From: Xanthomonas bonasiae
Lineage (GTDB): Bacteria; Pseudomonadota; Gammaproteobacteria; Xanthomonadales; Xanthomonadaceae
DNA length: 42,817 bases
Assembly: GCF_017163705.1 (NCBI RefSeq)
Contig: NZ_JAFIWB010000035.1
Coordinates: 1 to 42,817, forward strand
Direction of reading: 5' to 3'
Made by a program: the position numbers and the translations under genes. The notes below the pieces were generated by a model. The model saw nothing but the letters and a program-made list of their open reading frames with translations. It had not been told where the DNA came from and searched no databases. Shown piece after piece: positions 7,210-29,320 of the stretch (position 1 is the first letter of the stretch; every line of letters begins with the position of its first letter).

Positions 7210-8637
7210 TCAGCCCTGCATCTGCTCCAGTTCGCGGCCCTTGGTCTCGTACACGTACTTGAGCACGAAGAACACCGAGACGAACGCGGCCACGGTGTAG
7301 ATGCCGTAGGCGCCTGCCAGGCCGATGCTGCCCAGCAGGATCGGGAACGAGACGGTGATGGCGAAGTTCGAGGTCCACTGCGCCGCGCCCGCCACCGCCA
7401 GGCCGGAGCCGCGGATCTGGTTGGGGAACATTTCGCCCAGCATCACCCACATCACCGGGCCCCAGGACATGTTGAAGAAGATCACGTAGACGTTGGCCGC
7501 GACCAGCGCCAGCCGGCCCATGCCCGGCGACATCGCCAGCTTGCCCGCCGCGTCCAGCGAGGCGCTGGCGAAGGCCAGGGTGACCAGCGCCAGCGACACC
7601 GCCATGCCGGCCGAACCGATCCAGAGCAAGGGTTTGCGCCCGATCTTGTCGATCAGCATCACCGTGATCAGGCAGGCGCCGATGCTCAGCGCGCCGGACA
7701 GCACGTTGATCAACAACGAATCGCTTTCGGAGAAGCCCACCGCCTGCCACAGCACCGCGCCGTAGTAGAACACCACGTTGATGCCGACCAGTTGCTGGAA
7801 GGTGGCCAAGCCGATGCCGATCCACACGATCGGACGCACCTTGCCGGTAACCTTGCTGACCAGGTCCGACAGCTTCGGCTTGTGCTGATCCGCGGCCAGC
7901 GAGGCGGAGATCTCGGTCAGCTTGGCCTGCGCCTCGCGCGGGCCGTAGAGCTTGGTCAGCACCGCCAGCGCGTCCTCGCGGCGGCCCTTGACCACCAGGT
8001 AGCGCGGGCTTTCCGGGATCGCCAGCAACAGCAGCAGGAACAGCAGCGACGGGAACGCCTGCATCCAGAACATCCAGCGCCACGCGGCCTGGCCCAGCCA
8101 CAGCGGCTCGGTCGAGGCGCTGGCCAGCTTGACCAGCACGTAGTTGCTCAGGAACGCGGTGAACAGGCCGCTGATGATGGCGATCTGCTGCACCGTGGCC
8201 AGGCGCCCGCGATAGCGCGCCGGCGCGACCTCGGCGATGTAGGCCGGCGACATCACGCTGGCCGCGCCGACCGCGAAGCCGCCCATGACCCGCGCGAAGA
8301 CGAAGAACGCGGAGCTGTGCGAAGCGCCGGCGCCGAGCGCCGACAGCAGGAACAGCACCGCGGAGATGATCAGCACCGCACGGCGACCGAGGCGATCGGC
8401 CAGCCAGCCGGCGAAGAACGCGCCGATCGCGCAGCCCAGCAGCATCGAGGCGACCTCGAAGCCGGTGCCGGCGGCGCTGGAATGGAAGGTCTGCTTGAGA
8501 CCGTCGACGGTGCCGTTGATCACGCCGCTGTCGAAGCCGAACAGGAAGCCGCCGATGGTGGCGACGCAACTGATGAGGATGATGAGGCGCGTGTTCTCGC
8601 CTGCGCCATGGGCGCGGTCTAGGGATACGCTGGACAT
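7210..8637 (-). CDS. MFS sugar:proton symporter, XylE-like
   Basis: This 475-residue inner-membrane protein has the twelve-helix architecture of the MFS sugar porter family. Motifs include FLFGFDSGVINGT in helix 1, DRLGRR in the loop between helices 2 and 3, PESPRYL before the central loop, QQLVGINVVFYYG in helix 7, DKIGRKPL, and a C-terminal YETKGRELEQ. The start is ATG at MSSVSLDRAHG; upstream codons of the frame lie in the intergenic hairpin region. It directly follows xylA and xylB, so D-xylose import is the most likely job. Glucose or galactose transport is possible because the family is mixed. It would bring in xylose released in the periplasm by the GH31 enzyme. Confidence 0.88.
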   Translation of the reverse strand: MSSVSLDRAHGAGENTRLIILISCVATIGGFLFGFDSGVINGTVDGLKQTFHSSAAGTGFEVASMLLGCAIGAFFAGWLADRLGRRAVLIISAVLFLLSALGAGASHSSAFFVFARVMGGFAVGAASVMSPAYIAEVAPARYRGRLATVQQIAIISGLFTAFLSNYVLVKLASASTEPLWLGQAAWRWMFWMQAFPSLLFLLLLLAIPESPRYLVVKGRREDALAVLTKLYGPREAQAKLTEISASLAADQHKPKLSDLVSKVTGKVRPIVWIGIGLATFQQLVGINVVFYYGAVLWQAVGFSESDSLLINVLSGALSIGACLITVMLIDKIGRKPLLWIGSAGMAVSLALVTLAFASASLDAAGKLAMSPGMGRLALVAANVYVIFFNMSWGPVMWVMLGEMFPNQIRGSGLAVAGAAQWTSNFAITVSFPILLGSIGLAGAYGIYTVAAFVSVFFVLKYVYETKGRELEQMQG

Positions 8638-8690
8638 TGAGTCACCTGGTGTCGTGCAGAAAGGAAGCCGGCCATCGGGGGAGGACAGCA

Positions 8691-8718
8691 CGGCCGGCGG
8701 CAAGGGTGCCGCCGGCCG
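8691..8718 (-). other. Intra-operon hairpin between xylA and the transporter gene
   Basis: CGGCCGGCGGC and GCCGCCGGCCG form an 11-bp perfect stem around the loop AAGGGT in the 90-bp gap between xylA and the MFS gene. No T-run follows. It may protect the upstream xylA message or attenuate transporter expression. Confidence 0.55.
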
Positions 8719-8727
8719 TCGCGCGCA

Positions 8728-10068
8728 TCAGCGGATCAGGTACTGGTTGATCAGGTTCTCGTAGGCTTCCTGGCGGCCGCTGACCTGCTTGGGCGCGCCG
8801 GCCTTGGCCGCGTGCGCCGCCAGGTCCGCCAGCGTGCTGCTGCCGGCCGCGAACGCCGCGCCGGCGCCGCTGTCGAAGCTGCTGTAGCGCTCGGCGCGCC
8901 ACTGCTCCAGCGGCGAGGCCGTCAACAGCGCATGGGCCACTTCCAGCCCGCGCGCGAACGCGTCCATGCCGCCGATGTGCGCCAGGAACAGATCCTGCGG
9001 ATCGGACGACTCGCGCCGCACCTTGGCGTCGAAGTTCAGCCCGCCCGGCGCCAGCCCGCCCTGGCGCAGCACCACCAGCATCGCCCCGACCGTGTCGTAC
9101 AGGTCGGTCGGGAACTGGTCGGTGTCCCAGCCGTTCTGCGGGTTGCCGCGGTTGGCGTCGATGCTGCCCAGCAACCCGGCATCGCTGGCGACCTGCAGGT
9201 CGTGCTCGAAGCTGTGGCCCGACAGCGTGGCGTGGTTGGCCTCGATGTTGAGCTTGAAATCCTGGTCCAGGCCGTGCTGGCGCAGGAAGCCGATCACCGT
9301 GGCGCTGTCGAAGTCGTACTGGTGCTTCATCGGCTCCATCGGCTTGGGCTCGATCAGGAAATTGCCGGTGAAGCCGATGCTGCGGCCGTAGTCGCGGGCG
9401 ATGGTCAGAAAGCGCGCCATGTTGTCCTGCTCGCGCTTCATCTGCGTGTTGTGCAGGCTGGCATAGCCTTCGCGGCCGCCCCAGAACACGTAGTTCTCCC
9501 CGCCCAGCTCGACCGTGGCCTCCAGCGCCGCCTTGACCTGCACCGCCGCGCGCGCGACCACGTCGAAGTCGGGATTGGTCGAGGCGCCGTTCATGTAGCG
9601 CGGATGCGAGAACAGGTTGGCGGTGCCCCACAACAGCTTGATGCCGGTGTCGGCCTGGCGCTGCTTGGCGATGCCGACCATGTGCTTGAGGTTCTTCTCG
9701 TACTGGCCGACCTCGTCGGCGTCCGGCGCCAGGTCGATATCGTGGAAGCAGTAGTACGGCACGCCGAGCTTGGTGAAGAACTCGAACGCCGCATCGGCCT
9801 TGGCCTCGGCGCGGCCCAACGCGTCGTTGCCGGCGTCCCACGGATAGGCGCGCGTGCCCGGGCCGAACGGATCGGCGCCGTTGCCGCAGAAGCTGTGCCA
9901 GTACGCCACCGCGAAGCGCAGGTGCTCGGCCATGGTCTTGTCGCCGATGCGCTTGTTCGCGTCGTAGACCTTGAAGGCGAGCGGGTTGTCCGAGGCCTTG
10001 CCTTCGAACGCGATGCGGCCGATGCCCGGGAAGTATTCCTTGGCGCCGATGTAGACGGAGTTGCTCAT
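8728..10068 (-). CDS. xylA: Xylose isomerase
   Basis: This 446-residue cytosolic enzyme interconverts D-xylose and D-xylulose with two divalent metals. It starts [19 protein letters not shown] and carries the family signatures VFWGGREGY and [10 protein letters not shown], as well as the segment [17 protein letters not shown] and the early block [14 protein letters not shown]. Length agrees with class II enzymes (about 440 residues). It lies 39 bp after xylB and 90 bp before the symporter. In this locus it handles xylose taken from xyloglucan side chains. Confidence 0.97.
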
Positions 10069-10107
10069 GACGAAGTCCTGGTGTGCGTTTGCGGGGGAAA
10101 AAGTGGA

Positions 10108-11601
10108 TCAGCCGGCGTAGAGCGGGCCAATGGCGTGCAAGTGCTTCAAGAAGGTCTGGTAGTGCGCCTGGTACTGCGCGCCGCGTTGCGGATCGGGCTG
10201 CGCCGACAGCGTCGCCTCGTCCTGCTGGTGCTGCAGCACGACCTCGGCCAGGCTGGCCTGGTCGCCCTGCGCGTGGCCGTCGGCCCACAGCGCCTGCAGC
10301 GCGGCGCCGAACGCGGCCCCCTCCGCCTGCGCCGGCACGTGCACCGGCAAGCCGAACAGGTCGGCGATCAGCTGCCGCCAGCCGGCGCTCTTGCTGCCGC
10401 CGCCGGTGACGTAGATCGAATCGAACGCCAGCCCGGCATCGACGAAGGCGTCGAAGCCGTTGCGCAGGCTGTAGGTGGCGCCTTCCATCGCCGCGCGGTA
10501 GAAATGCGCCGGCGTGGTGTTGTGCAGGTCCATGCCGGTCATGCAGCCGCGCGCGGCCGGCAGGTTCGGGGTGCGCTCGCCGTTGAAGAACGGCAGCAAC
10601 ACCAGCCCGCCGGCGCCGGGCGCGGTGGCCTCGAGCAAGGCCTCGCCCTGCCCGGTCTTGATCCCGAACAGGCGCGAGATGGTCTCGGTGGCCACGGTGC
10701 AGTTCATCGTGCAGATCAACGGCAGCCAGCCGCCGCTGGACGAGCAGAACGCGGCCCAGCGCGCGGCATCGTCGACCACCGGACGATCGGCGTACGCGAA
10801 CAGCGTGCCGGAGGTGCCCAGGCTCATCGTCAGCCGTCCCGGCACCACGTTGCCAGTGCCGATCGCGGCCATCATGTTGTCGCCGCCGCCGGTGGCCACG
10901 CGCACGTCGCGCGGCAGGCCCAGGGTCTGCGCCGCGGCCGCGGACAGAACGAAGGTGGTCTCGGTCGGCACCAGCGGCGGCAGCGCCGCAGCCAGGTCGC
11001 GCTGCGGATCGATCGCCTGCAGCAGCGGCGCCGACCACTGCCGGGTGCGCACGTCCAGCCAGCCGCTGCCGGAGGCGTCGCCGAACTCGGTGTAGCGCTC
11101 GCCGGTGAGCCAGAAATTGACGTAGTCGTGCGGCAGCAGCACCGAGGTCATCGCGGTGTAGGCGTCGCTGCGGTGCTTGCGCGTCCACGGCAGCTTGGAG
11201 GCGGTGTAGCCGGCCAGGATCGGGTTGCCGGCCAGCTCCACGCAGCGCTGTTCGCCGCCGGCGGCCTGCATGATCTCCTCGCACTCCAGCTGGGTGCTGG
11301 TGTCGCACCACAGCTTGACCGGTGCGGTGACCTGCCCTTGCGCATCCACCGGCACGAAGCCGTGCTGCTGCCCGGACACCGAAATCGCGCGCACCTGCGC
11401 ACGCTGCTCGGCGGTCAGCGCGGCGAAGCAGGCGACGATGCCGTCGATCCACCACTGCGCCTGCTGCTCGCGGGTGCCGTCGTCGCGGCTGATCAGTTCC
11501 AGCGCATGGCCGTGCGTGGCGACCACGCGGCGGCTGTCCGCATCGTAGGCCAGCAGCTTGACGCTCTGCGTGCCCACGTCCAGGCCGATGTACAGACTCA
11601 T
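10108..11601 (-). CDS. xylB: Xylulokinase
   Basis: This 497-residue FGGY-family kinase phosphorylates D-xylulose to xylulose 5-phosphate. The N-terminal phosphate motif is YIGLDVGTQSVKLLAYD. The catalytic-base region is FGDASGSGWLD, and the C-terminal ATPase half carries GGGSKSAGWRQLIADLFG. The ATG overlaps the GH95 stop codon by four bases, which sets the start and shows that side-chain hydrolysis and xylose metabolism are made from one transcript. The large frame upstream is the antisense-like shadow of the GH95 gene. Confidence 0.96.
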   Translation of the reverse strand: MSLYIGLDVGTQSVKLLAYDADSRRVVATHGHALELISRDDGTREQQAQWWIDGIVACFAALTAEQRAQVRAISVSGQQHGFVPVDAQGQVTAPVKLWCDTSTQLECEEIMQAAGGEQRCVELAGNPILAGYTASKLPWTRKHRSDAYTAMTSVLLPHDYVNFWLTGERYTEFGDASGSGWLDVRTRQWSAPLLQAIDPQRDLAAALPPLVPTETTFVLSAAAAQTLGLPRDVRVATGGGDNMMAAIGTGNVVPGRLTMSLGTSGTLFAYADRPVVDDAARWAAFCSSSGGWLPLICTMNCTVATETISRLFGIKTGQGEALLEATAPGAGGLVLLPFFNGERTPNLPAARGCMTGMDLHNTTPAHFYRAAMEGATYSLRNGFDAFVDAGLAFDSIYVTGGGSKSAGWRQLIADLFGLPVHVPAQAEGAAFGAALQALWADGHAQGDQASLAEVVLQHQQDEATLSAQPDPQRGAQYQAHYQTFLKHLHAIGPLYAG

Positions 11602-13985
11602 TGCCGCACCAGCCGATCGTCGTGCAAACCCAGTTCCATCGTCGCTCCAGGAGAAAGATCGGCGGTCAGGGTCTGCCCGCCGTAAACCAAAGTGTAGTGC
11701 CCGCCACGCTCGCTGCTCAGTCGCGCATGCTGCAGGCGGCCATCGCGCCAGGCCAGATCGACGCCGGCCGCGCCGCGCACGCGCAACCCGCGCACCTGCC
11801 CCTGCGGCCAGGCCTGCGGCAGCGCCGGCAACAGCCAGATGCTGTCGCCCCAACTCTGCAGCAGCATTTCGGTGATGCCGGCGGTGCCGCCGAAGTTGCC
11901 GTCGATCTGGAACGGCGGATGCGCGTCGAACAGGTTCGGATAGGTACGCTCGGGCGCCAGCAGCATCGCCAGAATACGATGCGCGTGCTCGCCGTCGTGC
12001 AGTCGCGCCCACAGGTTCAGGCGCCAGCCGAGGCCCCAGCCGGTAGCGCTATCACCGCGGATCTGCAGCGAGCGCCGCGCCGCGGCGGCCAACTCGGGGG
12101 TGTCGCGCAGGTTGATCTGGCTGGACGGATGCAGCGCATACAGATGCGAGACGTGGCGATGGTGGATTTCCGGGGCCTGCATGTCCCAGTCCTGCTGCCA
12201 CTCCTGCAGCTGCCCGGCGTCGCCGATGCGGTCCGGCGGCAGCTGCGCGCGCAACGCCGCCAGGCGCTCGCCGAAGGCCGCGTCCACGCCCAGCAAGCGG
12301 CCCATTTTGATGCACTGCGCAAAAAGATCGCGCAACAATTGCGCATCCATCGCCGGGCCGGCGCACAGCGCGGCGCCGAACGGATGCCGGTTCTCCGGCG
12401 ACATCGATGGGTTGGTCACCATCGCGCCGGTCTGCGGATCGCGCACCAGGGTGGCGACGAAGAACTCGGCCGCGCCCTTGAACAGCGGATAGATGCGCTG
12501 CAGGTAGGCGCGATCGCGGCCGTAGTCCCAGCGGTCCCACAGCTGTTGCAGCAGCCAGACGCCGCCCATCGGCCACAGGCTCCACTTCACCCCGTCGACC
12601 GGCCCGGCCTGGCGCCACAGGTCGGTGTTGTTGTGCACCACCCAGCCTGGCGCGGCGTACATCGCCCGCGCGGTGCGGGCGCCGGTTTCGGCGAGATCGA
12701 ACAGCATGGCTTCCAGCGGTTCCACGCATTCGTGCAGCGCGTTGGCCTCGCTGGGCCAGTAGTTCATCTCGGTGTTGATGTTGACCGTGTATTTGCTCTC
12801 CCACGGCGGCTGCATCAGGTCGTTCCAGACGCCTTGCAGGTTGGCCGGCTGGCTGCCCGGCCGCGAGCTGCTGATCAGCAGGTAACGGCCGTACTGGTGG
12901 TAGAGCGCGGCCAGTGCCGGATCGTTGCCGTCGGCGTAGCGTTGCACGCGCTCGTCGGTAGGCAGCTGCGCGGCAGCGCTGCCGCCCAGGTCGATCGCCA
13001 CCCGGCGGAACAGGCGCCGGTGTTCGGCCAGATGCCGCTGCAGCAACTGCGCATAGGGCAGCGCCGCCGCCTTGCGCAGTTGCGCGGCGCTGAGCGCCAG
13101 CGGATCGCCGCCGACGTCGTCGTAGCGCCGGTAGCTGGTGGCCGCGGTCAGCAGCAGCACCACCTCGTCGGCGCCTTCGATGCGGATCCGCCCGCGCTCG
13201 ATGCGGGTCTGGCCGCCAGTGGCCTGCGGCAGCACGCGCAACGCGAAGCGCAGTCCCCCCTCGATGCCGGCGAAACCGGCGTTGCGCCCGGCAAACAGCA
13301 ACGCGCCCTGCTCTTCGGTGACCTCGCCGGCCTGCGGGCTGTCGATGCCGATGCGCAGCGAGATGCGGCCGGGGTGATCGCAGGACAGGCGCACCACGAT
13401 GCACTGTTCGGTCGGCGAGACGAACACCTGGCGGACATGCGTGGCGTCGCCCGAGACAAAGCGGGTGCTGGCCACCGCCGTGTCCAGATCGAGTTCGCGC
13501 CGATAGCCGTCGATGCCGTCGGCACGGTCGTAGTCGAGCAGCAGGTCGGCCAGCGGCTGGTACGGCATCTGCTTGCGCGGGCGCGACAGCATCGTCGCGT
13601 CGGCCAATGCCTCGGCCTCGGCATAGCGGCCGGCGAAGATCAGTGCGCGCACCTGCGGCAACGCCGCCAACGCCTCCGGCGAGGTCGCATCGTAGGGCTG
13701 GCCCGCATACAGCGTGTCTTCGTTCAACTGCAGGCGCTCGTGGGCGATGCCGCCCCAGACCATCGCACCGAGCCGGCCGTTGCCGAGCGGCAGCGCCTCC
13801 ACCCATTGCGTGGCCGGGCGCGGATACCACAGCTGCAGCGCGGCAGGTTCGGCGGCGGTCGCCGGTACCGGCACGCGCGCGGCACCGGCATCGGCAGCGA
13901 GCGCAGCGCCCGGCACGGCGAGACCGGCGACCAGGCCGCCGCCGATCGCCTTGCACAGCTCGCGGCGGGTCAGCGCGATGCTCAC
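11598..13985 (-). CDS. GH95 alpha-L-fucosidase (or alpha-L-galactosidase), Tat-exported
   Basis: This 795-residue periplasmic glycosidase removes terminal alpha-1,2-L-fucosyl units, in this context from xyloglucan side chains. The GH95 catalytic pieces known from Bifidobacterium AfcA are visible: N402 and N404 in NINTEMNYW, the acid E531 in SMSPEN, and the base D695 in DGNFGG. The N-terminus TRRELCKAIGGG followed by a hydrophobic stretch to ALA is a twin-arginine signal, unusual for a glycosidase of this type. The start is a GTG (VSIALTRREL) with GGGGA eight bases before it. The gap of 184 bp to the GH31 gene upstream has only a small 6-bp hairpin at 14062-14078. Confidence 0.92.
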   Translation of the reverse strand: MSIALTRRELCKAIGGGLVAGLAVPGAALAADAGAARVPVPATAAEPAALQLWYPRPATQWVEALPLGNGRLGAMVWGGIAHERLQLNEDTLYAGQPYDATSPEALAALPQVRALIFAGRYAEAEALADATMLSRPRKQMPYQPLADLLLDYDRADGIDGYRRELDLDTAVASTRFVSGDATHVRQVFVSPTEQCIVVRLSCDHPGRISLRIGIDSPQAGEVTEEQGALLFAGRNAGFAGIEGGLRFALRVLPQATGGQTRIERGRIRIEGADEVVLLLTAATSYRRYDDVGGDPLALSAAQLRKAAALPYAQLLQRHLAEHRRLFRRVAIDLGGSAAAQLPTDERVQRYADGNDPALAALYHQYGRYLLISSSRPGSQPANLQGVWNDLMQPPWESKYTVNINTEMNYWPSEANALHECVEPLEAMLFDLAETGARTARAMYAAPGWVVHNNTDLWRQAGPVDGVKWSLWPMGGVWLLQQLWDRWDYGRDRAYLQRIYPLFKGAAEFFVATLVRDPQTGAMVTNPSMSPENRHPFGAALCAGPAMDAQLLRDLFAQCIKMGRLLGVDAAFGERLAALRAQLPPDRIGDAGQLQEWQQDWDMQAPEIHHRHVSHLYALHPSSQINLRDTPELAAAARRSLQIRGDSATGWGLGWRLNLWARLHDGEHAHRILAMLLAPERTYPNLFDAHPPFQIDGNFGGTAGITEMLLQSWGDSIWLLPALPQAWPQGQVRGLRVRGAAGVDLAWRDGRLQHARLSSERGGHYTLVYGGQTLTADLSPGATMELGLHDDRLVRQ

Positions 13986-14169
13986 TTTGCGTCCCCGCCC
14001 GCATGCGGCGGACGCCAGCGCCGCCACGCGCTGCGGGTGCAGGCCGCCCGCGCGCACCGGACCCGGACCGAATCCGGGCGCGCAGCGGCACCGCTCGTGC
14101 CGCAAACGCGCCGCAGCGCCGCCCGCGTCACGCCGCCGCCCATGCCCGGGTTGCCGCGCACCTCGGCCA

Positions 14170-17070
14170 TCACTTCGCCTTGCTGCCCTTGTTGCGCTTG
14201 GCGCCCTTCGCCGCCTTGCGCGCGACGCTCAGGCTCTTGCCGCTGTATTGCACGCTGGCGTCGGCCTTGGGCTCCAGCGCCCCGGTCTCCTCGCGCACGC
14301 CATCGACGAAGCGCACGTTGATGGTGCGCTTGGCCAGCATGCCCGGCCAGCTGCCCTCGCGCGCGCCGATGGTCAGCACGCCCTTGGCCTGGTTCCAGCT
14401 CAGCGGAATGCGGCTGAACTCGCCCTTCTCGTAGCCATAGCCCTTGCCGTCGTCCTCGTACAGCGAGAACTGGCCGTCGGCGCCGGTGTAGACGACCACG
14501 GTCAGCGGCGCGTTCGGCACCTCGTCCACGTATTGCTGCACGGTGGTGGTGGGCACGATGGCCCCGGCGCGCACGAACAGCGGCATGCGCTCCAGCGGCG
14601 CGGCGGCGTCGATGCTCTGGCCGCCGTCGTAGCGCTTGCCGCTGTTGAAGTCGATCCACGAGGTCCCGGCCGGCAGGTAGACCTGGCGCGAGGTGGCGCC
14701 GAAACGGGTCACCGGCGCGACCAGGAAGGCCGGCCCGAACAGGTACTCGTCGTTGATGTCGGCGACCTTGGGATCGTGCGGGAAGTCCATCGGCAGGCCG
14801 CGCATCATCACCCCGTCGTGGTGATAGGTATCGCCGGCGAGCGTGTAGATGTACGGCAACAGCGCATACCGCAGGCGGCTGTAGTACGCCATGCTCGCAT
14901 AGTACGGCGTGCCTTCCGGGGCGATGTTCCAGATCTCGCGGAACGGGAACTGGCCGTGCGAGCGGAACAGCGGCACGAACGCGCCGAACTGGAACCAGCG
15001 CGTGTTGAGCTCGCGCCATTCGCTCTGGTGCGCCGGGTCCTGGTCCTCGTAGCGCTTCTCCACCGCGAAACCGCCGATGTCGAAGGTCCAGTTCGGCAGG
15101 CCGGACATGGAGACGTTGACGCCGGCGGAGATCTGGTCGCGCATGTCGTCCCAGCGCGAGACGATGTCGCCGCTCCACACCGCCACCGCATTGCGCTGGG
15201 TGCCGGCATAGCCCTTGCGCGAGAGGATGAACACGCGCTTGCCGTCGGCGGCGCGGTCGCCGGCATAGACGCCGTGGGTGTGCGGCAACGGGTAGGAATT
15301 GAAGAACTCGGTGGACGGGCCGAGCGCGGTCGGCGTGGTGCGCGCCTTGCGCTCGCCGATGTCCAGGTTGGAGTGCACGTCCGGCTCGTCGGCATCCATC
15401 CACCACGCATCGAAGCCCTTGCTGTTGAGCTTGTCGTTGATCTGCCGCCAGTAGATCGCCTGCGCGTCGGCCGAATACGGGTCGTAGAACGAGTTCTTGT
15501 AGCCCTTGCCGATCCAGTCCAGTTCGCCGACTTCGACGTTGCGCCTGTACATGTGCCCGGCGGCGTCGAGTTCCTTGTAGTTGGCGGTGGTCGGATAGAA
15601 CTTCGGCCAGATCGAGATCATGATCTGCGCGTGCATGTCGTGCACCGACTTGACCATGCCATCCGGATCGGGGAAGTGGGCCTTGTCGAAGTCGTGCGAA
15701 CCCCACGCGTTCTCCGGCCAGTACGACCAGTCGAGCACGATGTTGTCGATCGGCAGCTTGCGCTTGCGGTACTCGGCCAGCGCGGCGACCAGTTCGTCCT
15801 GGCTCTTGTAGCGCTCGCGGCTCTGCCAGAAACCGTAGGCCCACTTCGGCAGCAGCACCGCCTTGCCGGTCAGTTCGCGATAGCCGGCGATGACCTGGTC
15901 GGCGTCGGCGCCGGCGACGAAGTAGTAGTCGATCATCTGTCCGGCCTCGGACCACAGCGACAGGTCCTTGGCCTCGGCCGCCGGCAGCGGGTCGCGGTGC
16001 AGCAGCGCGATGTAGCTTGGATCGATCAGGTCCCACTCGACCTTGATCTTGTGGCGCTGGCCCGGCTGCAGCGCGAGGGTGAACTCGTTGTGCCACGGGT
16101 TCCAGTTCTGGCGCCAGCGGTCGACCACCAGCTTGCCGTCGACCCACAGCTTGGCGTACTCGCTGGAGTACAGCGAGAAGCTGTGCTCGCCGCCGCTCCT
16201 GGCCTCGATCTCGCCTTCCCAGCTGACCTGCATGCGGCTCTTGTCGCTGGGCTTGGCCTTGGCCGGGAACTTGGCCAGGTCCTTGATGTACTGGTAGTTG
16301 AGCTCCTTCTCGCGGCGCTCCAGCACCTGCTTGCCGTTGACCGAATAACGCGCGGTCAGCGCGCCCGGCTTGCCCTTGGCGTCGTACAGCTTCAGCGACG
16401 CCGGCAGCGGCTGCAGGCCGCGCGGGTCGCCCATGCGGGTGATCGAATTGTTGTCCCACAGGATGCCGTAGTTGCGGCTGGACACCAGGTACGGCACCGC
16501 CAGGTCGATATTGCTCTGCAGCAGTTCGACGTTGTGGCCCTTCTGGTTCATCCAGCCCTGCTGGTGCTGGCCGAAGCCGTAGAAGGCCTCGTCGTCGGGC
16601 GAGGCGAAGCGCTGGCGCGTGCTCAGATAGGATTTGCCCTCCACCTTCAGCGGCGCGAAGCTGCGCCCGCCCGCCACTTCCGCCAGCAGCGGCTTGCCGT
16701 CGGCATCGGCGAAACTGACATGGCCGTCGCGCGTGGACACCTGCGCGGTGACCTTGGCGGTCTTGATCCGCACCGTGTCGCCCTGCTCGTCGAACTGGTA
16801 GGCGGTGTCGCCCTGTACCGGCACCCGCATCAGGCTCGGGGTGCGCTTGAAATCGCCGTCCGGATCGGCGCTGACGCGGATGATGCCGCTGTCCACCACC
16901 TGCAGCCGTACCGGCGCGGCGCCCTTGGCGCTGGGACGCACGGTGACGCCATCGGCGTCCTTCTTCACTTCCTGCGCATTCGCGCCGGCGGCGAGCAGCG
17001 CCAGCGACAAGGCCAGCAGGCGCGGCAGCGGCTTCATCGCCAGGCGGACGGGACGGTTCGCGTTGTACAT
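14170..17070 (-). CDS. GH31 alpha-xylosidase with PA14 insert
   Basis: This 966-residue enzyme removes non-reducing alpha-1,6-xylosyl residues from xyloglucan oligosaccharides. A Sec signal peptide ends at AAGANA. A PA14-like module is inserted at about 230-380 (SGGEHSFSLYSSEYAKLWVDG), as in the Cellvibrio Xyl31A type. The GH31 catalytic nucleophile is D559 in WWMDADEPD, and the acid/base is D635 in WSGDIVSRWDD. The start MYNANRPVRL has GAGGGAG six bases upstream; a second ATG 33 bp later would also give a signal peptide. The C-terminus is strikingly lysine-rich (KAAKGAKRNKGSKAK). It lies 53 bp after the GH35 gene. Alpha-glucosidase is the alternative, less likely given the PA14 insert and neighbours. 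Confidence 0.93.
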   Translation of the reverse strand: MYNANRPVRLAMKPLPRLLALSLALLAAGANAQEVKKDADGVTVRPSAKGAAPVRLQVVDSGIIRVSADPDGDFKRTPSLMRVPVQGDTAYQFDEQGDTVRIKTAKVTAQVSTRDGHVSFADADGKPLLAEVAGGRSFAPLKVEGKSYLSTRQRFASPDDEAFYGFGQHQQGWMNQKGHNVELLQSNIDLAVPYLVSSRNYGILWDNNSITRMGDPRGLQPLPASLKLYDAKGKPGALTARYSVNGKQVLERREKELNYQYIKDLAKFPAKAKPSDKSRMQVSWEGEIEARSGGEHSFSLYSSEYAKLWVDGKLVVDRWRQNWNPWHNEFTLALQPGQRHKIKVEWDLIDPSYIALLHRDPLPAAEAKDLSLWSEAGQMIDYYFVAGADADQVIAGYRELTGKAVLLPKWAYGFWQSRERYKSQDELVAALAEYRKRKLPIDNIVLDWSYWPENAWGSHDFDKAHFPDPDGMVKSVHDMHAQIMISIWPKFYPTTANYKELDAAGHMYRRNVEVGELDWIGKGYKNSFYDPYSADAQAIYWRQINDKLNSKGFDAWWMDADEPDVHSNLDIGERKARTTPTALGPSTEFFNSYPLPHTHGVYAGDRAADGKRVFILSRKGYAGTQRNAVAVWSGDIVSRWDDMRDQISAGVNVSMSGLPNWTFDIGGFAVEKRYEDQDPAHQSEWRELNTRWFQFGAFVPLFRSHGQFPFREIWNIAPEGTPYYASMAYYSRLRYALLPYIYTLAGDTYHHDGVMMRGLPMDFPHDPKVADINDEYLFGPAFLVAPVTRFGATSRQVYLPAGTSWIDFNSGKRYDGGQSIDAAAPLERMPLFVRAGAIVPTTTVQQYVDEVPNAPLTVVVYTGADGQFSLYEDDGKGYGYEKGEFSRIPLSWNQAKGVLTIGAREGSWPGMLAKRTINVRFVDGVREETGALEPKADASVQYSGKSLSVARKAAKGAKRNKGSKAK

Positions 17071-17095
17071 GTTCACTCCCTCTGTAGCGGGTGAC

Positions 17096-17117: not shown

Positions 17118-17123
17118 GAGGTG

Positions 17124-18839
17124 TCAGTAGGTGGCCAGCTTGATCTTCAGCAATTGCGGCACATCGGAGAAATTGACGCCGTAGTCGGTCTGATCGCCGT
17201 TCCAGTTGCGCTGGAACTTCCACTGCGTGTCATCGTAGAAGCCTTCCTCGACGCGGTCGTAGACCATGTTGGCGGTCGCTTCGCTGGCCGGGTGCAGGTT
17301 CACCCGCACGTGGTAGCCGGTGACCAGGAATTCGTCCGGGCCCAGTTCGGCGATCAGCGCCGCGCCGGTCGGCTCGGGATTGCCGGGCGGCGTGCCCTTG
17401 AACCAGAACTGCGGCACGCCGTAGGTGATGGTCGCGCTCCAGCGCGCGTTGAGCCGCAGCTCCTGCACCGGCTGGCCGGGTTCCTCGGCGGTGCCGTGCA
17501 GCTTGCCTTCGGAGGCGGCCTTGGCGAACGGGCGCATGCCCATGCCCACCGCCTTGAAGCCCAGCGCGAACGGCGCCATGGTCGGCTCGTCCACCTTCTT
17601 GGCGCCCAGCGGCCAGTTCGAATAACCGCTGTAGTCGATGCCGAAAGTCGACCAGCCGATGCCGTCGTGGCCGAGCGCGGCGTACAGGTAACGTGCGTAT
17701 TCGGGCCGGTTGCCGGTCTCGGCGACGAACAGCGGGTTGTCCGGCCGCGCGTAGCGATCGAGCACGGTGATGTACGGCGTGTAGTCGGGCAGGTAGATGT
17801 CCGGCGCCAGCAGGTCGATGTGCGGCGCAGCGGCCTTCCACACGTCGAGCACGTTGTCGGTGGGACCGCCGCTGGCGTACTGGCCGGGCTGGCCGGGATT
17901 GAACGGACCGCGCAGTGCCGCGTTGACGTACATCGGCAACGGGTATTCGGCCTTGCCGGCCGCGGCCACCTGGTCGATGAAGTGGCCGATATGCCAGGCG
18001 TGGAAGAACTCGTCGGCGTCGGCGCCGAACACCTGGGCCCAGGTGCCGGGCTGCTTGCCCAGTTTCTGCAGCAGCGCCTCGGGCACCGGTCCGTCGAAGG
18101 CTTTCTGCGCCAGCGGCGAGAAATCGCGCACGCTGCCGTAGGTGCCCGGCTCGTTCTCCGGCTGCACCATCAGCACGGTGCGCTGCGGGTCGGCCTGCTT
18201 GAGGTGCTTCATGAACGCGACGAAGGCCTTGCGATCGGCGTCCAGCGTGGCCGGCGCCAGCGGCGACAGCGACCCCAGCGCCTTGCCGTCGCGGGTGACG
18301 ACCCGCGGGAAACGCACGTTGTCGGTCTTGACCCAGTGCGGCGTATAGGCCGGCCCGTTGTTCTTCCAGGTGCCGAACCACAGCAGCACCAGCCGCACCT
18401 TGTGCGCGCGCGCCTGCGCCAGCAGCGTATCGACGAAGGAGAAATCGAACTTGCCCTCCTCCGGTTCCACCTGCTCCCAGGCGATCGGCACCTGCACGGT
18501 GTTGGGGCCAAGGAACTGCATCGCCGGCCACACCTTTTCCAGGGCGGCGGGATAGTTGCTGGAATTGTTGACCTGCGCGCCGAGAATCAGGAACGGCGCG
18601 CCATCCACCAGCAGCGCGTGCTTGCCGTCCTTGCTGACCAGCTGCGGGATCGGCGCCGGCGCCGCCGGTGCAACGCTGGCCTGGTCGGCAGCGGGCTTGG
18701 CCGCGCCAGGCTTGGCCGCAGCGGCGTCGGGCGGCGCCTGCTCGGGCGCGCACGCCGCCAGGCCAAGCGCGAACGTGGCGGCCAGCAGCGGGTGCCAGCG
18801 GCGGCGTGCGAGGAACGTGCGGGAAGCGAGGGAATGCAT
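17124..18839 (-). CDS. GH35 beta-galactosidase, lipoprotein
   Basis: This 571-residue enzyme cuts terminal beta-1,2-galactosyl units, here from xyloglucan side chains. The N-terminus has a lipoprotein signal with LGLAAC as lipobox, then a long Ala/Pro-rich linker (about 28-65), so the enzyme is probably membrane-anchored in the periplasm. Catalytic residues of clan GH-A are visible: acid/base E230 in QPENEPG and nucleophile E374 in VAETGN. The C-terminal part resembles the accessory domain of Xanthomonas-type GH35 enzymes. It begins 17 bp after the CE20-like gene. The longer frame upstream is a shadow of that gene. Confidence 0.93.
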
Positions 18840-18856: not shown

Positions 18857-20788
18857 TCACCAGGTATCGGTTCGGAAGGGGGAAACGGGCAACTGCTCGC
18901 GGTTGACCAGGTTGGCCTCGGCCGGGTTTTCGCTCCAGGCATAGCGCACCGCCTGCGGTTGCGCCACTTCGGCGCTTTCGACCACCACCACCCGGTCGCC
19001 GTCGATGCGCGCCTGCGCCGGATGGAAGCGGCGGTCGGCGCCGGCCACGCTGAAACCGTGCAGCTGCGCGGCACCACCGCGTATCGCCAGCGCACTGCCC
19101 ATCGGATCGAAACGCAACGCGACCGCATGCCGGCCGAACTCGGCCTGCGCGAATACCGGCGCGCTGTAGACCAGCTGTTCGCCATAGGCCACATGCCGCG
19201 CCGCCAGCGCGAGGCGATGGCCGACGTCCTGCTTGTTGGTCGGATGGATGTCGCCGGGCGTGCCGATGTCGATGGTCACCGCCTGCGCGGTCGCCGGCAG
19301 CGCCAAGGTCCTGGACTGCGATTCGCGCAGCTGCGCCCACGGGCTGAGGTCGCCCTTGTCGGAGCCTGCCTGGAAGTTGGCCAGCTGCACCCACAGGAAC
19401 GGCAACTGCGGCTGTGCGCGTTCCTCGCGCCAGCTGCGGATCAGGGTCGCGAACTGCTCGCGGTAGCGCAGCGCGCCGCCTTCGTAGGCATTGCTCTCGC
19501 CCTGGTACCAGATCACGCCCTTGAGCGGAAACGGCTGCAGTGGATGGATCATGCGGTTGTACAGCAGCGTCGGCTGCTGGTTCCTGCCGTCGTCCAGCGT
19601 CACGCTCACCTTGGCCGGACGGAATTTCCATTCCGGCAACGGGCGCTTCGTGCCGTCGCCGAGTTGCACGAAGCGTTCGCTGTCGTCGCCGTGCAGGCCG
19701 CCACCGCCGCTGAGGTCGGTCACCTGCACCGCGATGCGGTTGACTCCGGCGTGCAGCGCCGCCGCGGGCACGCGGTACACGCGCGGCAGGTTCCAGCGCT
19801 GCTCGGTATGCCCGACCGGCTGGCCGTTGACGTAGGTGATGTCCGAGTCGTCGACCTGGCCGACCCCCAGGGTGATGCCGGCCTCGGCCTCCTCCGCGCT
19901 GAGGGTGAAGGCGGTGCGGTACCAGGCGATGCCGTCCATGCCGTCGTAGCCGCTGGCCTCCCAGTTGCGATCGACCGCAATCCGGTCCCAGTCGCTGTCG
20001 TCCAGGTCGGCGGCGCGCCATTGTTCGGCGCCATCGGCCACCGCCGGCCAGCGCGCGATGCGCTGCCGCACCGCGGCCAGGGTCTGCGCGTCCTTGGCCT
20101 GCAGCGCGGCGATGCTGTGCTCGGTCTGCGCGGCATCCATGCCCAGCGCTGCGGCATCCATCCACGCCTCGATCGCGCTGCCGCCCCAGCTGCTGTCGAC
20201 GATGCCGATCGGCACCCCGGTGCTCCTGCGCAACTCGCGCGCGAAGAAATAGCCGACCGCGGAAAACGCGCCGGCGTCCTGCGGCGTGGCGGCCTTCCAT
20301 TCGCCGCCGGCCAGCTGTCGCTGCGGCTGCGGCGACCACGACTTGGGCACCTTGAAATGACGCAACTGCGGATCGTTCGCCGCGGCCACCTCGCGCGCGC
20401 CGTCGCGCGCCTGCGCCAGCGGCCACTCCATGTTGGACTGGCCGCTGGCCAGCCACACGTCGCCGACCAGCACGTCGCCGAGACGGCGTTGCGCACCGTC
20501 GCCCTGCACCTCCAAGACATACGGCCCTCCGGCCGCATGCGCCGGCAGCTGCGCCTGCCAGCGCCCGTCCGCGGCGGCGACGGCGGTCGCCGCGGCACCG
20601 TCCAGGCGCACCTGGATGCGCGCGCCCGGCGTGGCCCAGCCCCACACGCGCATCGGCACATCGCGTTGCAGCACCGCGCCGTCGGCGAACAGCAACGGCA
20701 GTTGCAACTCCGCCCAGGCCGATGCGGGCAGTGCCGCCAGCGCCAAGGCGGCCAGCCAGTACAGACAACGGGTCGAGCGTGCGTTCAT
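18857..20788 (-). CDS. CE20-like xyloglucan acetylesterase (sialate O-acetylesterase-related SGNH hydrolase)
   Basis: This 643-residue exported esterase belongs to the SASA/sialate O-acetylesterase superfamily. A Sec signal ends at LPASAWA. The SGNH catalytic serine is S118 in SGQSNMEW, and the Asp and His are in [10 protein letters not shown] (D513, H515). A beta-sandwich resembling a GH2 sugar-binding domain appears inserted between the two halves of the SGNH fold (about 255-375, [18 protein letters not shown] onward). Family CE20 was defined on a xyloglucan acetylesterase from Xanthomonas, and the operon context supports deacetylation of xyloglucan galactosyl groups. A sialic acid role is unlikely because no sialidase or sialate genes are nearby. 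Confidence 0.88.
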
Positions 20789-20902
20789 CGGATCGTTCCT
20801 GCATCGGTCGTTGCCGCCGGCGGCGCGCACGGCAACAGGGAAGCCAGCGCAGCGCCCGCGCAGGCGCGCGCACGGCCGCATGCAACGCGCTGGCCGCGCG
20901 GA

Positions 20903-23170: not shown

Positions 23171-23271
23171 CGTGCGCCCTACTCCGAGTGCAACCGACGG
23201 CCACGCCGTCGGCAGGAAAACCCCCGCTCCGGCCACGCTGCGCGCGCCGGAGCGGATCGACCGCGCCGTGC

Positions 23272-26004: not shown

Positions 26005-26179
26005 GGTGCTTCCCTCCCAGGACACATGTACAAACGATTCGGCGATCGTGCCAAGGGCAACGTCGCCGTTTCTAAGTTGTCCGGCCGCACCTGCCGAAAT
26101 GGGATGCTGGCCGCAAGTCGGACACGAGCGGGGTTGCCGCAGCGCGCACGCGATCGGAGACGATCACGACTCGGGCCTG

Positions 26180-26209
26180 AGAATAGGTTGCAGTCACCAT
26201 GCCATCCAA
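26180..26209 (-). promoter_or_regulatory. Possible sigma-70 promoter of the second receptor gene
   Basis: On the minus strand TTGGAT (26204-26209) and TATTCT (26180-26185) are 18 bp apart, about 175 bp before the start codon. An AT-rich patch (about 26208-26262) lies just upstream. The rest of 26005-26335 contains no gene that I can support. Confidence 0.35.
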
Positions 26210-26335
26210 TGAAATATTTACAGTTAGCTATATGTTTTCCACATACGAAAAGCGAGTCCGCCTGTAAACAGCCGCATACCGCCGTTGCGCAGGCTGTTTC
26301 GTTTCGGCGCGACGCCGACCGCATCCGCAACGCCA

Positions 26336-26368
26336 TAAAAAAAGCCCGCATGCGTCGCGCATGCGGGC
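26336..26368 (-). terminator. Intrinsic terminator after the first receptor gene
   Basis: GCCCGCATGCG and CGCATGCGGGC form an 11-bp perfect stem around TCG. On the minus strand it is followed by a run of seven T. It lies 27 bp after the stop codon of the 26396-29320 receptor gene, so that gene may be mostly monocistronic. Confidence 0.92.
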
Positions 26369-26395
26369 CGAGGACAGCGTCCTGGCGAACGTCGC

Positions 26396-29320
26396 TTACC
26401 AGTTGGCGCGCAGCACCAGCGAATAGCGGCGGTCGTTGACGAACCAGCTGCGCGTGTACAGGTGGTTGTCGACCTCGCCGTCGGCATAGGAGGTCGGCCC
26501 CATCAACACCTTGGTCACGGTATTGGTCAGGTTGTTGGCCTGGACACCGAGCTGCAGATGCGGGGTGAAGCGATAGAACACCGAAGCGTCGAGCTGGCCG
26601 TAGTCGTCCGACCAGGTCGGCAGCTTGGTCGCCACGTCGCTGGCGGTCAGCAGGTAGCGCGAACGCCAGTTGTAGGCCAGGCGTACCGACAACGGCCCCT
26701 TCTCGTAGATGCCGGCGAGGTTGTAGCTGCGCCGCGACAGGCCTTCCAGCGGCAGGCTCACACCGGTGACGGTGGTCTGCGTGTAGGGATCGGTCGCGGA
26801 ATTGACGCCGCCGCTGCTGTCCACGAAGGTGAAGTTGGCATTGACGCCGAAGCCGCTCAGCCAGCCCGGCCACGAGTCGAAGAACTGCGTGTAGCCGTAC
26901 TCGAAACCGCGGATGCGGCCCTTGGACATGTTGTACGGCCGCGTCACCAGCCAGTCCTGGCCACCGTAGGTCTCGGTGGTGGTCTGGGTGGAGAAGTAGT
27001 CCTTGACGCTCTTGTAGAACAGGGTCAGGTACATCATGTCGCTGGTGTCGAAATACCATTCCAGCGCGGTGTCGTACTGGTTGGCCTTCATCGGCTTGAG
27101 GTTCGGATTGCCCGCGGTGCCGGTCCACTTGGACACGGTGCCGTCCTCCTCGGTGGTCGCCGCCAGCAGCAGGTACGGCTGCAGCTGGGTGTAGTCCGGC
27201 CGCGCCATCGCCTTGGACGCGGCGATGCGCCACTGCAGCGCATCGGAGAACTTGAAGCGCATGTTGAAGCTCGGCAGCACGTTGGTATAACTGCCTTGCG
27301 CGTTGTTGGCGAAGAACTGCCCGGTGTACTGCGCCTTGAGCGCATCGGAGGCGGCGGTGGCCGACAGGTCGGGGAACTGGCCGTAGCCGGTGGCCTCGGT
27401 CTTGGTCTGCACGATGCGCACGCCGATGTTGCCGTCCACCGGCACGCCCAGCGCCTCGTCGTTGCCGAAGTACAGCACCGCGTAGGCCGCCTGGGTACGC
27501 TCGAACTGGCGGTTGGTGTCCTGCAACTGGTACTGGTCCGGCGCCCAGCCCCAGCCGCGCAGCGCCACAATCTGCTCGATCAGCTTGGAGGTGCCGGCAT
27601 AGTCCTTGACCGCGGCATTGCTCGGGAAATACAGACTATTGGGCACGCTGATCTTGCCGCGGAACAGGTTCGAGTACGAATACAGCTGCGAGGACGAGGT
27701 CATGTAGCTGGCCAGGTCCGCCAGGCCGGTGCTGGTTTCGGGAATCGTCGCCCAGTTGTCGCTGATCACGCCCCAGTTGTAGCCGGAATTCTTGTTGGTC
27801 TGGGTGCGGTCGGTGGCGCGGATACCGGCGCGGAAGGTGCGCAGCCACGGGTTGTCGTCGTAGGTGTATTCCAGGTCGAAGCGCGTGGCCAGTTCGCGGC
27901 CGCGATTCTTCGCCAGGTGGTCCATCGCCGCGCTCCAGAAATAATTGGAGGGGTCGGAGGTATAGCTGGTATCGGCGATCGACACCGCCGGGTACTTGCC
28001 GCTCAGGTCGAAGGTCAGGCCCGGCAGGTAGACCGAACTGAACAGGGTGAAGTCCAGCGAATCGCTTTCCGACTGCACCAGTTGCATGTCGCCGCGCACG
28101 GTGAGGTTGCTGGTGAGCTTGTGGGTGAAACCGCCGGACAGGTCGGAGGTGGTGGTGCTCTGCTGCGCGTAGCGGTTGTCGGTGTAGAAGCGCACGCCAT
28201 CGTTGCCAGTGACGTTGCCGCGCCAGGAACTGGACACCGGCGAGCCGCTGACGAAACGGCCGTCGGCGTCGTAGGTGAAGGTGGTGCCGGGGGCGGGACT
28301 GATCGCGTTGGTGTCGTCGTTGAAGAACGCCGCGCGCTCCTGCCAGTTCATGTCGTAGGTGGAGCGCATGTACTGCACGTAGATTTCGGTGTCGTCGCTG
28401 GGCCGCCACTGGAACGCCCCGGCCACGCCCTTGCGCTTGCGTTCGAAATCCAGCTGCCGCCAGTTGACGCCGCCGGGCACGTAGACCTTGTCGAAATCGG
28501 TGCCGGCCAGCAACGCCGCATCGGTGCGGCGCACGAACGGCTCCACCTGGATGCCGTCGCTGCGGGTGGCCAGTTCCGAATAGGCCACGTCCAGCATCAG
28601 CCCCATCTCGCCGACGCCGGTGTTCCAGCGATCGCTGAACAGGAACGAGCCGGACGGCTTGTAGGTCTTGCTGAAGTCGCCGTAGTTCTCGTCGGCGGTG
28701 AAGCCGATCACCCGGCCGGGCTGGTCGAACGGCATGCGCGTGCGCAGGTTGACCGTGCCGCCGAGGCCGCCTTCGATGATCTCAGCCGACGGGTTCTTGT
28801 ACACGTCCACGCCGGCCATCAGTTCGGCCGGCACGTCCTCGAAGCTGAGTCCGCGGCCGCTGGCGGCGCTGAAGCTGTCGCGCCCGTTGAGCTCGCCGCG
28901 CACCTGGGTCATGCCGCGGATCATCACGCCGCTGCCTTCGGCGGAGAAATGGTCGGGGTCGTTGCGCGCCATGAAGTGGTCGATGGTCACGCCGCTGACC
29001 CGCTGCAGGGTCTCGGTGACGCTGCGGTCGGGCAGCGCGCCGATGTCCTCGGCGCTGACCGAATCGACGATCTGCTCGGCATCGTGCTTGATCGTCTGCG
29101 ACTTGATCAGGCTGGCGCGCACGCCTTTGACCTCGATCGCGTCGAGCTGGGTCACCGGATCGGCGCTCTTCTTCTTGCTGCTGTCCTCGGCGTCCTGTGC
29201 CATCGCCTGCGCGCTCAACAACAGGCCGATGCTCAGCGCCATGGCCGAACGACGCAAAAGACAGGTAGTACGAACCGCTGCGGTCGGCGAGGCCGGACCA
29301 CGGTAATGACGCGATGACAT
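26396..29320 (-). CDS. TonB-dependent receptor, probable xyloglucan oligosaccharide importer (1)
   Basis: This 974-residue outer-membrane protein has a signal peptide ending at AQAMAQ, a TonB-box-like LDAIEVKGVR and a plug (about 75-190) with AEDIGALPDRSVTETLQRV, MIRGMTQVRGELNGR and EGGLGGTVNLRTR. The beta-barrel ends in the aromatic LVLRANW. It is homologous to the next receptor gene over the plug and much of the barrel, but is about 65 residues longer. The start MSSRHYRGP has GGGAGGGA in front. A strong terminator follows it, separating it from the second receptor gene. Substrate is inferred from the locus. Confidence 0.92.
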   Translation of the reverse strand: MSSRHYRGPASPTAAVRTTCLLRRSAMALSIGLLLSAQAMAQDAEDSSKKKSADPVTQLDAIEVKGVRASLIKSQTIKHDAEQIVDSVSAEDIGALPDRSVTETLQRVSGVTIDHFMARNDPDHFSAEGSGVMIRGMTQVRGELNGRDSFSAASGRGLSFEDVPAELMAGVDVYKNPSAEIIEGGLGGTVNLRTRMPFDQPGRVIGFTADENYGDFSKTYKPSGSFLFSDRWNTGVGEMGLMLDVAYSELATRSDGIQVEPFVRRTDAALLAGTDFDKVYVPGGVNWRQLDFERKRKGVAGAFQWRPSDDTEIYVQYMRSTYDMNWQERAAFFNDDTNAISPAPGTTFTYDADGRFVSGSPVSSSWRGNVTGNDGVRFYTDNRYAQQSTTTSDLSGGFTHKLTSNLTVRGDMQLVQSESDSLDFTLFSSVYLPGLTFDLSGKYPAVSIADTSYTSDPSNYFWSAAMDHLAKNRGRELATRFDLEYTYDDNPWLRTFRAGIRATDRTQTNKNSGYNWGVISDNWATIPETSTGLADLASYMTSSSQLYSYSNLFRGKISVPNSLYFPSNAAVKDYAGTSKLIEQIVALRGWGWAPDQYQLQDTNRQFERTQAAYAVLYFGNDEALGVPVDGNIGVRIVQTKTEATGYGQFPDLSATAASDALKAQYTGQFFANNAQGSYTNVLPSFNMRFKFSDALQWRIAASKAMARPDYTQLQPYLLLAATTEEDGTVSKWTGTAGNPNLKPMKANQYDTALEWYFDTSDMMYLTLFYKSVKDYFSTQTTTETYGGQDWLVTRPYNMSKGRIRGFEYGYTQFFDSWPGWLSGFGVNANFTFVDSSGGVNSATDPYTQTTVTGVSLPLEGLSRRSYNLAGIYEKGPLSVRLAYNWRSRYLLTASDVATKLPTWSDDYGQLDASVFYRFTPHLQLGVQANNLTNTVTKVLMGPTSYADGEVDNHLYTRSWFVNDRRYSLVLRANW

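What the first reader, a model, noticed from the sequence alone, without database searches (positions are those of the whole stretch)
7210..29320. Compact xyloglucan utilization locus covering uptake, all side-chain removals and xylose catabolism
Ten consecutive minus-strand genes combine two TonB-dependent receptors, GH74, CE20-like esterase, GH35, GH31 with PA14 insert, GH95, xylB, xylA and a XylE-like symporter. Catalytic residues are intact in GH74, CE20, GH35, GH31 and GH95. Xyloglucan loci are known in Xanthomonas, so the system is not wholly new. The fusion of xylB-xylA-transporter to the end of the glycosidase operon by a GH95/xylB ATGA overlap makes this a single programme from polymer to xylulose 5-phosphate.
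Basis: partly seen in the sequence, partly recalled or inferred. Interest (0 to 1): 0.8.

Follow-up and report, generated by a model that had tools for sequence, protein, structure and literature searches.

The report
Xanthomonas xyloglucan locus with galactose switch
This is a known Xanthomonas gene cluster for eating the plant-wall sugar xyloglucan; the new part is a short DNA signal, repeated in front of its uptake genes and of the neighbouring galactose-breakdown genes, which predicts that galactose switches both on together.

Summary
The ten minus-strand genes exist as described: two TonB receptors, GH74, CE20, GH35, GH31, GH95, xylB, xylA and an MFS sugar porter. Five glycan enzymes match solved structures over nearly their whole length and keep the catalytic residues. 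The GH95/xylB ATGA overlap is real and widespread. But this locus is the published Xanthomonas XyGUL (PMC8245568, XAC1768-1777), including xylB, xylA and the MFS gene, all induced by xyloglucan oligosaccharides.

"One single programme" is too strong: a terminator follows receptor 1, receptor 2 has its own upstream region, no beta-glucosidase is present, and xylB survives in relatives that lost glycosidases.

A shared element, ATAG-N10-AWWTTTCATTKG, stands before dgoA, receptor 1 and receptor 2; the exact pattern occurs only these three times in the 5.38-Mb genome. In 247 family genomes, 72 of 75 exact copies lie within 5 kb of a gamR gene in the expected orientation. I read it as the GamR box, making the locus a galactose-switched regulon. 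Binding is inferred, not shown. My library searches turned up no description of such a box.

The parts
26396..29320 (-). TonB-dependent receptor 1 (XAC1768-type)
   Evidence: Pfam plug + barrel; NCBIfam TonB-Xanth-Caul 691 bits
23272..26004 (-). TonB-dependent receptor 2 (XAC1769-type)
   Evidence: Pfam plug + barrel; NCBIfam TonB-Xanth-Caul 833 bits
20903..23170 (-). GH74 endo-xyloglucanase, probably secreted; start codon uncertain
   Evidence: best match 7kn8, E=0 over residues 44-753
18857..20788 (-). CE20 xyloglucan acetylesterase
   Evidence: best match 7kmm, E 1.5e-293, Ser and Asp-x-His kept
17124..18839 (-). GH35 beta-galactosidase, lipobox-like signal (by eye)
   Evidence: 8fa4 and 7kmn, E=0
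14170..17070 (-). GH31 alpha-xylosidase with PA14 insert
   Evidence: 7kmp, E=0; Pfam GH31 + PA14
11598..13985 (-). GH95 alpha-L-fucosidase, twin-arginine-like signal TRRELCK (by eye)
   Evidence: 7kmq, E=0; motif positions
10108..11601 (-). xylB xylulokinase; ATG overlaps GH95 stop (ATGA at 11598-11601)
   Evidence: NCBIfam XylB equivalog 521 bits, above cut-off 380
8728..10068 (-). xylA xylose isomerase
   Evidence: NCBIfam xylose_isom_A 698 bits, above cut-off 533
7210..8637 (-). MFS sugar porter
   Evidence: Pfam Sugar_tr 377 bits; XylE equivalog below its cut-off
29694..30653 (-). LysR regulator, GamR-like
   Evidence: Pfam HTH_1 + LysR_substrate; next to the XyGUL where PMC8245568 places XAC1767 = GamR; about 84-85% identical to the gene at the same place in most named Xanthomonas loci. 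No published GamR sequence was compared.
30836..31606 (+). dgoA KDPGal aldolase (true start may be near 30986)
   Evidence: NCBIfam 281 bits, cut-off 207
31603..32754 (+). dgoD galactonate dehydratase
   Evidence: NCBIfam equivalog 649 bits, cut-off 311
32748..33680 (+). SMP-30/gluconolactonase-family lactonase
   Evidence: Pfam SGL E 1.2e-73
33677..34576 (+). dgoK 2-keto-3-deoxygalactonokinase
   Evidence: Pfam DGOK E 3e-95
30699..30724 (+). putative GamR box facing dgoA
   Evidence: exact match; 1 of 3 in the genome
29508..29533 (-). putative GamR box before receptor 1
   Evidence: exact match; 1 of 3 in the genome
26206..26231 (-). putative GamR box before receptor 2
   Evidence: exact match; 1 of 3 in the genome
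26343..26369 (-). intrinsic terminator after receptor 1
   Evidence: 12-pair stem + T run; comparable stems in 6 of 7 other full-locus genomes

Best explanation
The window carries the Xanthomonas xyloglucan utilization locus next to a galactose-catabolic operon. Secreted GH74 cuts xyloglucan. The two receptors import the oligosaccharides. CE20, GH95, GH35 and GH31 strip acetyl, fucose, galactose and xylose in the periplasm. A sugar porter brings in monosaccharide; XylA/XylB make xylulose 5-phosphate; the divergent dgo operon takes galactonate to pyruvate and glyceraldehyde 3-phosphate. The LysR protein GamR, encoded between the two arms, most likely binds ATAG-N10-AWWTTTCATTKG before dgoA, receptor 1 and receptor 2 and activates all three in response to galactose (or a galactose metabolite). 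This closes a positive loop: galactose released by GH35 raises uptake and catabolism. Shown by sequence: gene content, order, boxes, terminator. Shown elsewhere for orthologues: enzyme activities, receptor function and induction by oligosaccharides. Inferred: GamR binding, its inducer, and that the boxes are used.
For: Enzymes. Published function of the same locus: PMC8245568. Boxes: 3 exact in the genome, all here; reversed-pattern control 0. In the genus, all 45 upstream regions cut out of 19 genomes (19 dgoA, 17 receptor 1, 9 receptor 2) hold the element, at up to 1 mismatch. In 247 family genomes there are 75 exact sites in 48 genomes, and gamR (E<=1e-80; at most 9 candidates scored per genome) in 54; 46 genomes have both, 2 the box only, 8 gamR only, 191 neither. 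44 sites face away from gamR, 41-71 nt from its start; 28 lie on its other side, on its strand, within 5 kb. All 8 of the 8 gamR-only genomes have 1-2-mismatch sites beside gamR. G019, without a gamR orthologue, has no site at <=1 mismatch. In the 39 loci L009-L047, 37 of 39 receptor-strand sites (<=1 mismatch) lie within 600 nt before a receptor match and 22 of 23 sites on the other strand within 150 nt of a gamR start. A review reports that GamR is a galactose-metabolism regulator that binds DNA directly at another target (PMC7831014 passages).
Against: No binding or expression data for the box. The pattern was drawn from the window's own three sites, so only the other genomes test it independently, and they are related to one another. 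The conservation profile was made from sites picked by the pattern itself, so it is partly circular. G108 (the X. axonopodis genome of L021, judged by identical coordinates) has the receptor boxes but no gamR found in its 330-contig assembly. G259 and G262 (Luteimonas, L035 and L038) have gamR and the dgo-side box but no recognisable receptor box at <=2 mismatches. In L025 one box stands upstream of GH74 and in L021 one before CE20, not before a receptor. In G215 the gamR match holds a stop codon and its sites are degenerate. Beyond L009-L047 and the genus I did not check genome by genome what lies downstream of the receptor-side sites. In two of the three window copies the box ends 19 nt before a CTA that could belong to a -10 element, so part of it could be core promoter. 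As far as I read, Vieira et al. propose GamR for hrpX, not for this locus. No galactose dehydrogenase was identified among the window genes examined.
Confidence: 0.7

Rival explanations
1. The locus is one long operon from receptor 1 to the sugar porter, induced by xylose through XylR, as the first reader's 'single programme' suggests.
For: All ten genes are co-directional; GH95/xylB overlap by ATGA here and in 28 of 33 other loci with both genes; the orthologues are all up with oligosaccharides (PMC8245568). One palindromic place at 12041-12054, inside GH95 about 440 nt before xylB, resembles the recalled xyl-box with 2 mismatches.
Against: Terminator after receptor 1 and a separate upstream region for receptor 2. 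The xyl-box pattern gives 4 hits at <=3 mismatches (2 of them the two strands of one place) against 1.92 expected, and 13 of 100 shuffles do as well. xylB is kept in 10 of 10 fetched genomes without intact GH95 (xylA full length in 8; in G012 the match covers 328 of 446 residues; the G001 stretch ends inside it), with GH95 relics in front of it in 7 of 10.
Confidence: 0.15
2. The shared element is a strong core promoter with an A/T-rich upstream part, used by the housekeeping sigma factor, not a GamR site.
For: In the receptor 1 and receptor 2 copies a CTA that could start a -10 element follows 19 nt after the box; the dgoA copy lacks it at that distance.
Against: Exact copies are confined to this locus in 5.38 Mb and follow gamR across the family; a general promoter would recur genome-wide.
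Confidence: 0.15
3. The element is bound by another regulator that happens to serve this neighbourhood; gamR is only a linked passenger.
For: Luteimonas G257 has a receptor-strand box about 8 kb from gamR; G108 has boxes and no detected gamR.
Against: 46 of 48 genomes with an exact box have gamR; 44 boxes sit 41-71 nt from the gamR start, the layout usual for LysR regulators (the layout rule is recalled).
Confidence: 0.15

Closest known systems
Xanthomonas XyGUL (XAC1768-XAC1777), Vieira et al. 2021, PMC8245568
   Same: Same gene families in the same order, same neighbours xylB, xylA, MFS and gamR. The best or second-best solved matches 7kn8, 7kmm, 7kmn, 7kmp and 7kmq are, as I recall and no call shows, entries of that study.
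   Different: Orthologues diverge: CE20 69-72% to most named Xanthomonas, 76% to Xanthomonas sp. GPE 39. In the parts I read the paper describes no shared promoter element and names no regulator of the XyGUL itself.
GamR galactose regulon, Rashid et al. 2016 (paper not held; known to me through PMC8245568 and passages of PMC7831014)
   Same: LysR regulator of galactose metabolism at the same place (XAC1767).
   Different: Reported there for galactose metabolism and hrpG/hrpX in X. oryzae; here the predicted targets are the xyloglucan receptors.
Bacteroides and Cellvibrio xyloglucan loci (as described in PMC8245568)
   Same: GH31 with GH95 in Bacteroides; GH31, GH35 and GH95 in Cellvibrio.
   Different: Other gene partners; that paper says the Cellvibrio genes are not linked to endoxyloglucanase or esterase genes.

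Membership tests
Xanthomonas XyGUL | Two TBDTs, GH74, CE20, GH35, GH31, GH95 in one cluster | tested here: met
Xanthomonas XyGUL | Adjacent xylulokinase, xylose isomerase and MFS | tested here: met
Xanthomonas XyGUL | No beta-glucosidase gene inside the cluster | tested here: met
   the ten products were searched; none is GH3 or GH1
Xanthomonas XyGUL | Induction by xyloglucan oligosaccharides | not testable with these tools
   shown for X. citri (PMC8245568)
GamR-type LysR regulator | LysR domains and position between galactose genes and XyGUL | tested here: met
GamR-type LysR regulator | Direct sequence comparison with the published GamR | not tested
   the original paper is not held and no named GamR sequence was compared
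GamR-type LysR regulator | Response to galactose | not testable with these tools
   none here
De Ley-Doudoroff galactose pathway | dgoD, dgoK, dgoA and a lactonase | tested here: met
De Ley-Doudoroff galactose pathway | Galactose dehydrogenase | tested here: inconclusive
   none among the window genes examined; the rest of the genome was not searched for it
XylE xylose symporter | NCBIfam XylE equivalog above cut-off | tested here: not met
   384.7 bits against 608
Single ten-gene operon | No terminator inside the gene run | tested here: not met
   terminator 26343-26369; read-through not tested

The most novel reading that the evidence does not exclude
GamR directly activates both xyloglucan receptor promoters and the dgo operon through ATAG-N10-AWWTTTCATTKG, so that galactose trimmed from plant xyloglucan is the cue that commits the cell to xyloglucan as a whole. 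The regulator that a review reports to bind upstream of hrp regulators would then be, in its family-wide role, the switch of hemicellulose feeding.
Probability: 0.55. Interest if true: 0.55.

Novelty: new member of a known kind. Interest (0 to 1): 0.38.

Why it matters
The enzymes are known, but how the cell senses xyloglucan is open: the published work, in the parts I read, shows induction without naming a regulator of the locus. A box whose exact form is found only here in the genome, and which follows gamR across many genera, makes that question testable in one gel-shift and one reporter assay, and would tie wall feeding to galactose sensing. The pattern of gene loss also shows which parts are dispensable (receptor 2, GH74, GH95 in several lineages) and which stay (gamR, dgo, xylB).

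Tried and rejected
The promoter scan with the sigma-70 consensus found 0 sites in 7000-26700 against 1.4 in shuffles; the terminator scan found 15 against 9.3, so only the strongest one is used here. The idea that GH95, GH74 and receptor 2 were gained late was dropped: GH95 relics sit before xylB in 7 of 10 genomes that lack the intact gene (E<=1e-3), CE20 relics lie in G004, and outgroup genera have GH74 and GH95. The tree of gamR+dgoD (22 rows) has 8 of 19 inner branches open, so I claim only that G003 and G004 fall among the full-locus genomes. Two-mismatch box hits elsewhere in the genome (L117-L119) were taken as chance; their genes were not looked at. One search used 22 rows of those held, and searches used the 247 genomes drawn by the tool from a larger family. 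No structure was predicted.

Full report
What is there. Family searches confirm two TonB-dependent receptors, GH31 with PA14, GH95, GH35, a sialate-acetylesterase-type (CE20-like) esterase, XylB, XylA and a sugar porter. Sequence comparison with solved structures gives best matches over nearly the whole protein for five enzymes: GH74 to 7kn8, CE20 to 7kmm, GH35 to 8fa4 and 7kmn, GH31 to 7kmp, GH95 to 7kmq, with the catalytic residues kept (positions; for GH74 and GH35 the residue assignment is recalled). The GH95/xylB ATGA overlap is real. Outside the window the same 4-base overlap is found in 28 of 33 fetched loci that hold both genes (8 of 8 unnamed genus genomes, 20 of 25 named loci); 5 have a gap of 13-28 bases. 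In six further named loci (L032, L033, L035-L038) the porter follows GH95 and no xylB match lies between; L024 and L042 end too soon to tell, and L045 shows no xylB in the stretch held.

It is published. Vieira et al. 2021 (PMC8245568; I read the Results and Discussion, plus passages) describe this locus in Xanthomonas: two TBDTs, GH74, CE20, GH35, GH31, GH95, with xylulokinase, xylose isomerase and an MFS transporter adjacent and all induced by xyloglucan oligosaccharides, and with GamR as XAC1767. They note that no beta-glucosidase is in the cluster and that arabinofuranosidases lie elsewhere. So the finding's headline is not new, and 'all side-chain removals' is too broad.

Just beyond 29320 lie a LysR gene (29694-30653, same strand) and, divergently, dgoA, dgoD, a lactonase and dgoK: a galactonate-degrading arm. 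I compared the three promoter regions by eye and found a common element, ATAG-N10-AWWTTTCATTKG, at 30699-30724 (facing dgoA), 29508-29533 (facing receptor 1) and 26206-26231 (facing receptor 2). Its core has 3 matches at up to 2 mismatches in the window against 0.19 expected. In the whole 5.38-Mb genome the exact pattern occurs three times, all here, with three further 2-mismatch hits elsewhere and none for the reversed control.

Test outside the window. In the genus (20 genomes, own included) 19 have a site at up to 1 mismatch; 45 of the 49 sites listed are at this locus, and the other 4 carry one mismatch. The 45 are the 19 dgoA, 17 receptor 1 and 9 receptor 2 upstream regions. The genome without any, G019, is also the one without a gamR orthologue (its best LysR match is 43% identical). 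In 247 family genomes the exact pattern has 75 sites in 48 genomes and gamR is in 54 genomes (at most 9 candidates scored per genome). Both are in 46, box only in 2, gamR only in 8, neither in 191 (Fisher p about 5e-39, which ignores kinship). Of the 75 sites, 44 lie 41-71 nt from the gamR start facing away from it, 28 lie on its other side on its own strand within 5 kb, 1 is on another contig of a gamR genome, and 2 are in genomes without gamR. Of those two, G108 carries the receptor-type site of X. axonopodis (same coordinates as the genome of L021), and G194 is an isolated hit. All 8 of the 8 gamR-only genomes have sites with 1-2 mismatches beside gamR; in one of them, G215, the gamR match holds a stop codon. 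In the 39 loci L009-L047, 37 of 39 receptor-strand sites stand within 600 nt before a receptor match; the exceptions are one before CE20 in L021, where receptor 2 and GH74 are gone, and one upstream of GH74 in L025; 22 of 23 sites on the other strand stand within 150 nt of a gamR start, the exception (L018) having only a partial gamR match. Against the reading: in Luteimonas G259 and G262 only the dgo-side site is seen at up to 2 mismatches, so in them the receptors may not be under this control.

Transcription units. A 12-pair terminator with a T run stands at 26343-26369, between the receptors. The scan finds a comparable stem in 6 of 7 other full-locus genomes; G002 has the stem with an interrupted T run that my rule did not count. 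Receptor 2 then has its own box. At least two transcription units are therefore likely on the minus strand; read-through was not tested.

Gene loss. CE20 is in 17 of 20 genus genomes and GH74 in 8 of 20. Layouts of 18 fetched genomes, with the window as a nineteenth: 8 of 19 full (window included); 7 without receptor 2, GH74 and GH95; 2 also without GH35; G004 without receptor 1, GH74 and CE20; G003 with no intact glycan gene in the stretch held. In all 18 fetched genomes dgoA, dgoD, part or all of the lactonase gene, gamR and xylB are kept; xylA is full length in 16 (in G012 the match covers 328 of 446 residues, and the G001 stretch ends inside it) and the porter is seen in 17. GH95 relics lie before xylB in 7 of the 10 genomes lacking the intact gene. 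So the sugar-catabolic ends are kept while the polymer-degrading middle is lost, the reverse of what an inseparable programme would predict. The 2021 paper already reported XyGUL loss in some grass-infecting species.

How it likely works. See Best explanation. The chain from polymer to monosaccharide rests on published work with orthologues; GamR control of the receptors is my inference from the boxes. A review (PMC7831014, passages) states that GamR binds DNA directly at the hrpG/hrpX region; the original paper is not held. I searched the held library for GamR, for regulators of xyloglucan uptake, for the De Ley-Doudoroff pathway in Xanthomonas and for locus tags, and looked at passages of PMC8245568, PMC7831014, PMC13282271 and PMC10714752; for the rest I saw only listings. 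I met no description of such a box; most subscription papers are not in that library.

Verdict. A correct observation of a known system in a further Xanthomonas-group genome, with a new and testable prediction about its control.

Noticed in passing
G000:C8:98165-99502 and window 8728-10068: A second xylose isomerase gene, 99% identical in protein to the one in the window, lies about 3.5 kb from a second CE20-like gene (C8:103034-104932, 44% identical); such close identity between paralogues may reflect gene conversion.
   Followed up: no
L026, L030, L032, L042 between GH74 and CE20; L025 on both sides of GH74: Lysobacter, Luteimonas and Pseudoxanthomonas versions carry an extra open frame of roughly 630-700 residues between GH74 and CE20 that looks like a GH2 enzyme, and L025 also a GH27-like frame before GH74 (by eye; no family search run).
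   Followed up: no
L097 (G015), between receptor 2 and GH74: A third receptor-like gene, similar to receptor 2 by eye, is inserted in this genome.
   Followed up: no
L017 (Xanthomonas populi), 7086-9600: Only partial matches to receptor 1 and receptor 2, with no GH74 match: possibly a receptor deletion or fusion.
   Followed up: no
L110 (G012), 13635-14880 in the oriented stretch: xylA matches only residues 1-328 of 446 in this small genome, so the gene may be shortened.
   Followed up: no
window 35843-36859: A dihydrodipicolinate-synthase family gene with a long, probably misread N-terminal extension, next to an ACT-domain gene on the other strand.
   Followed up: no
window 3939-4013, 42507-42583 and 42743-42817: tRNA-Glu and two tRNA-Arg (ACG) genes, the last at the window's end.
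   Followed up: no
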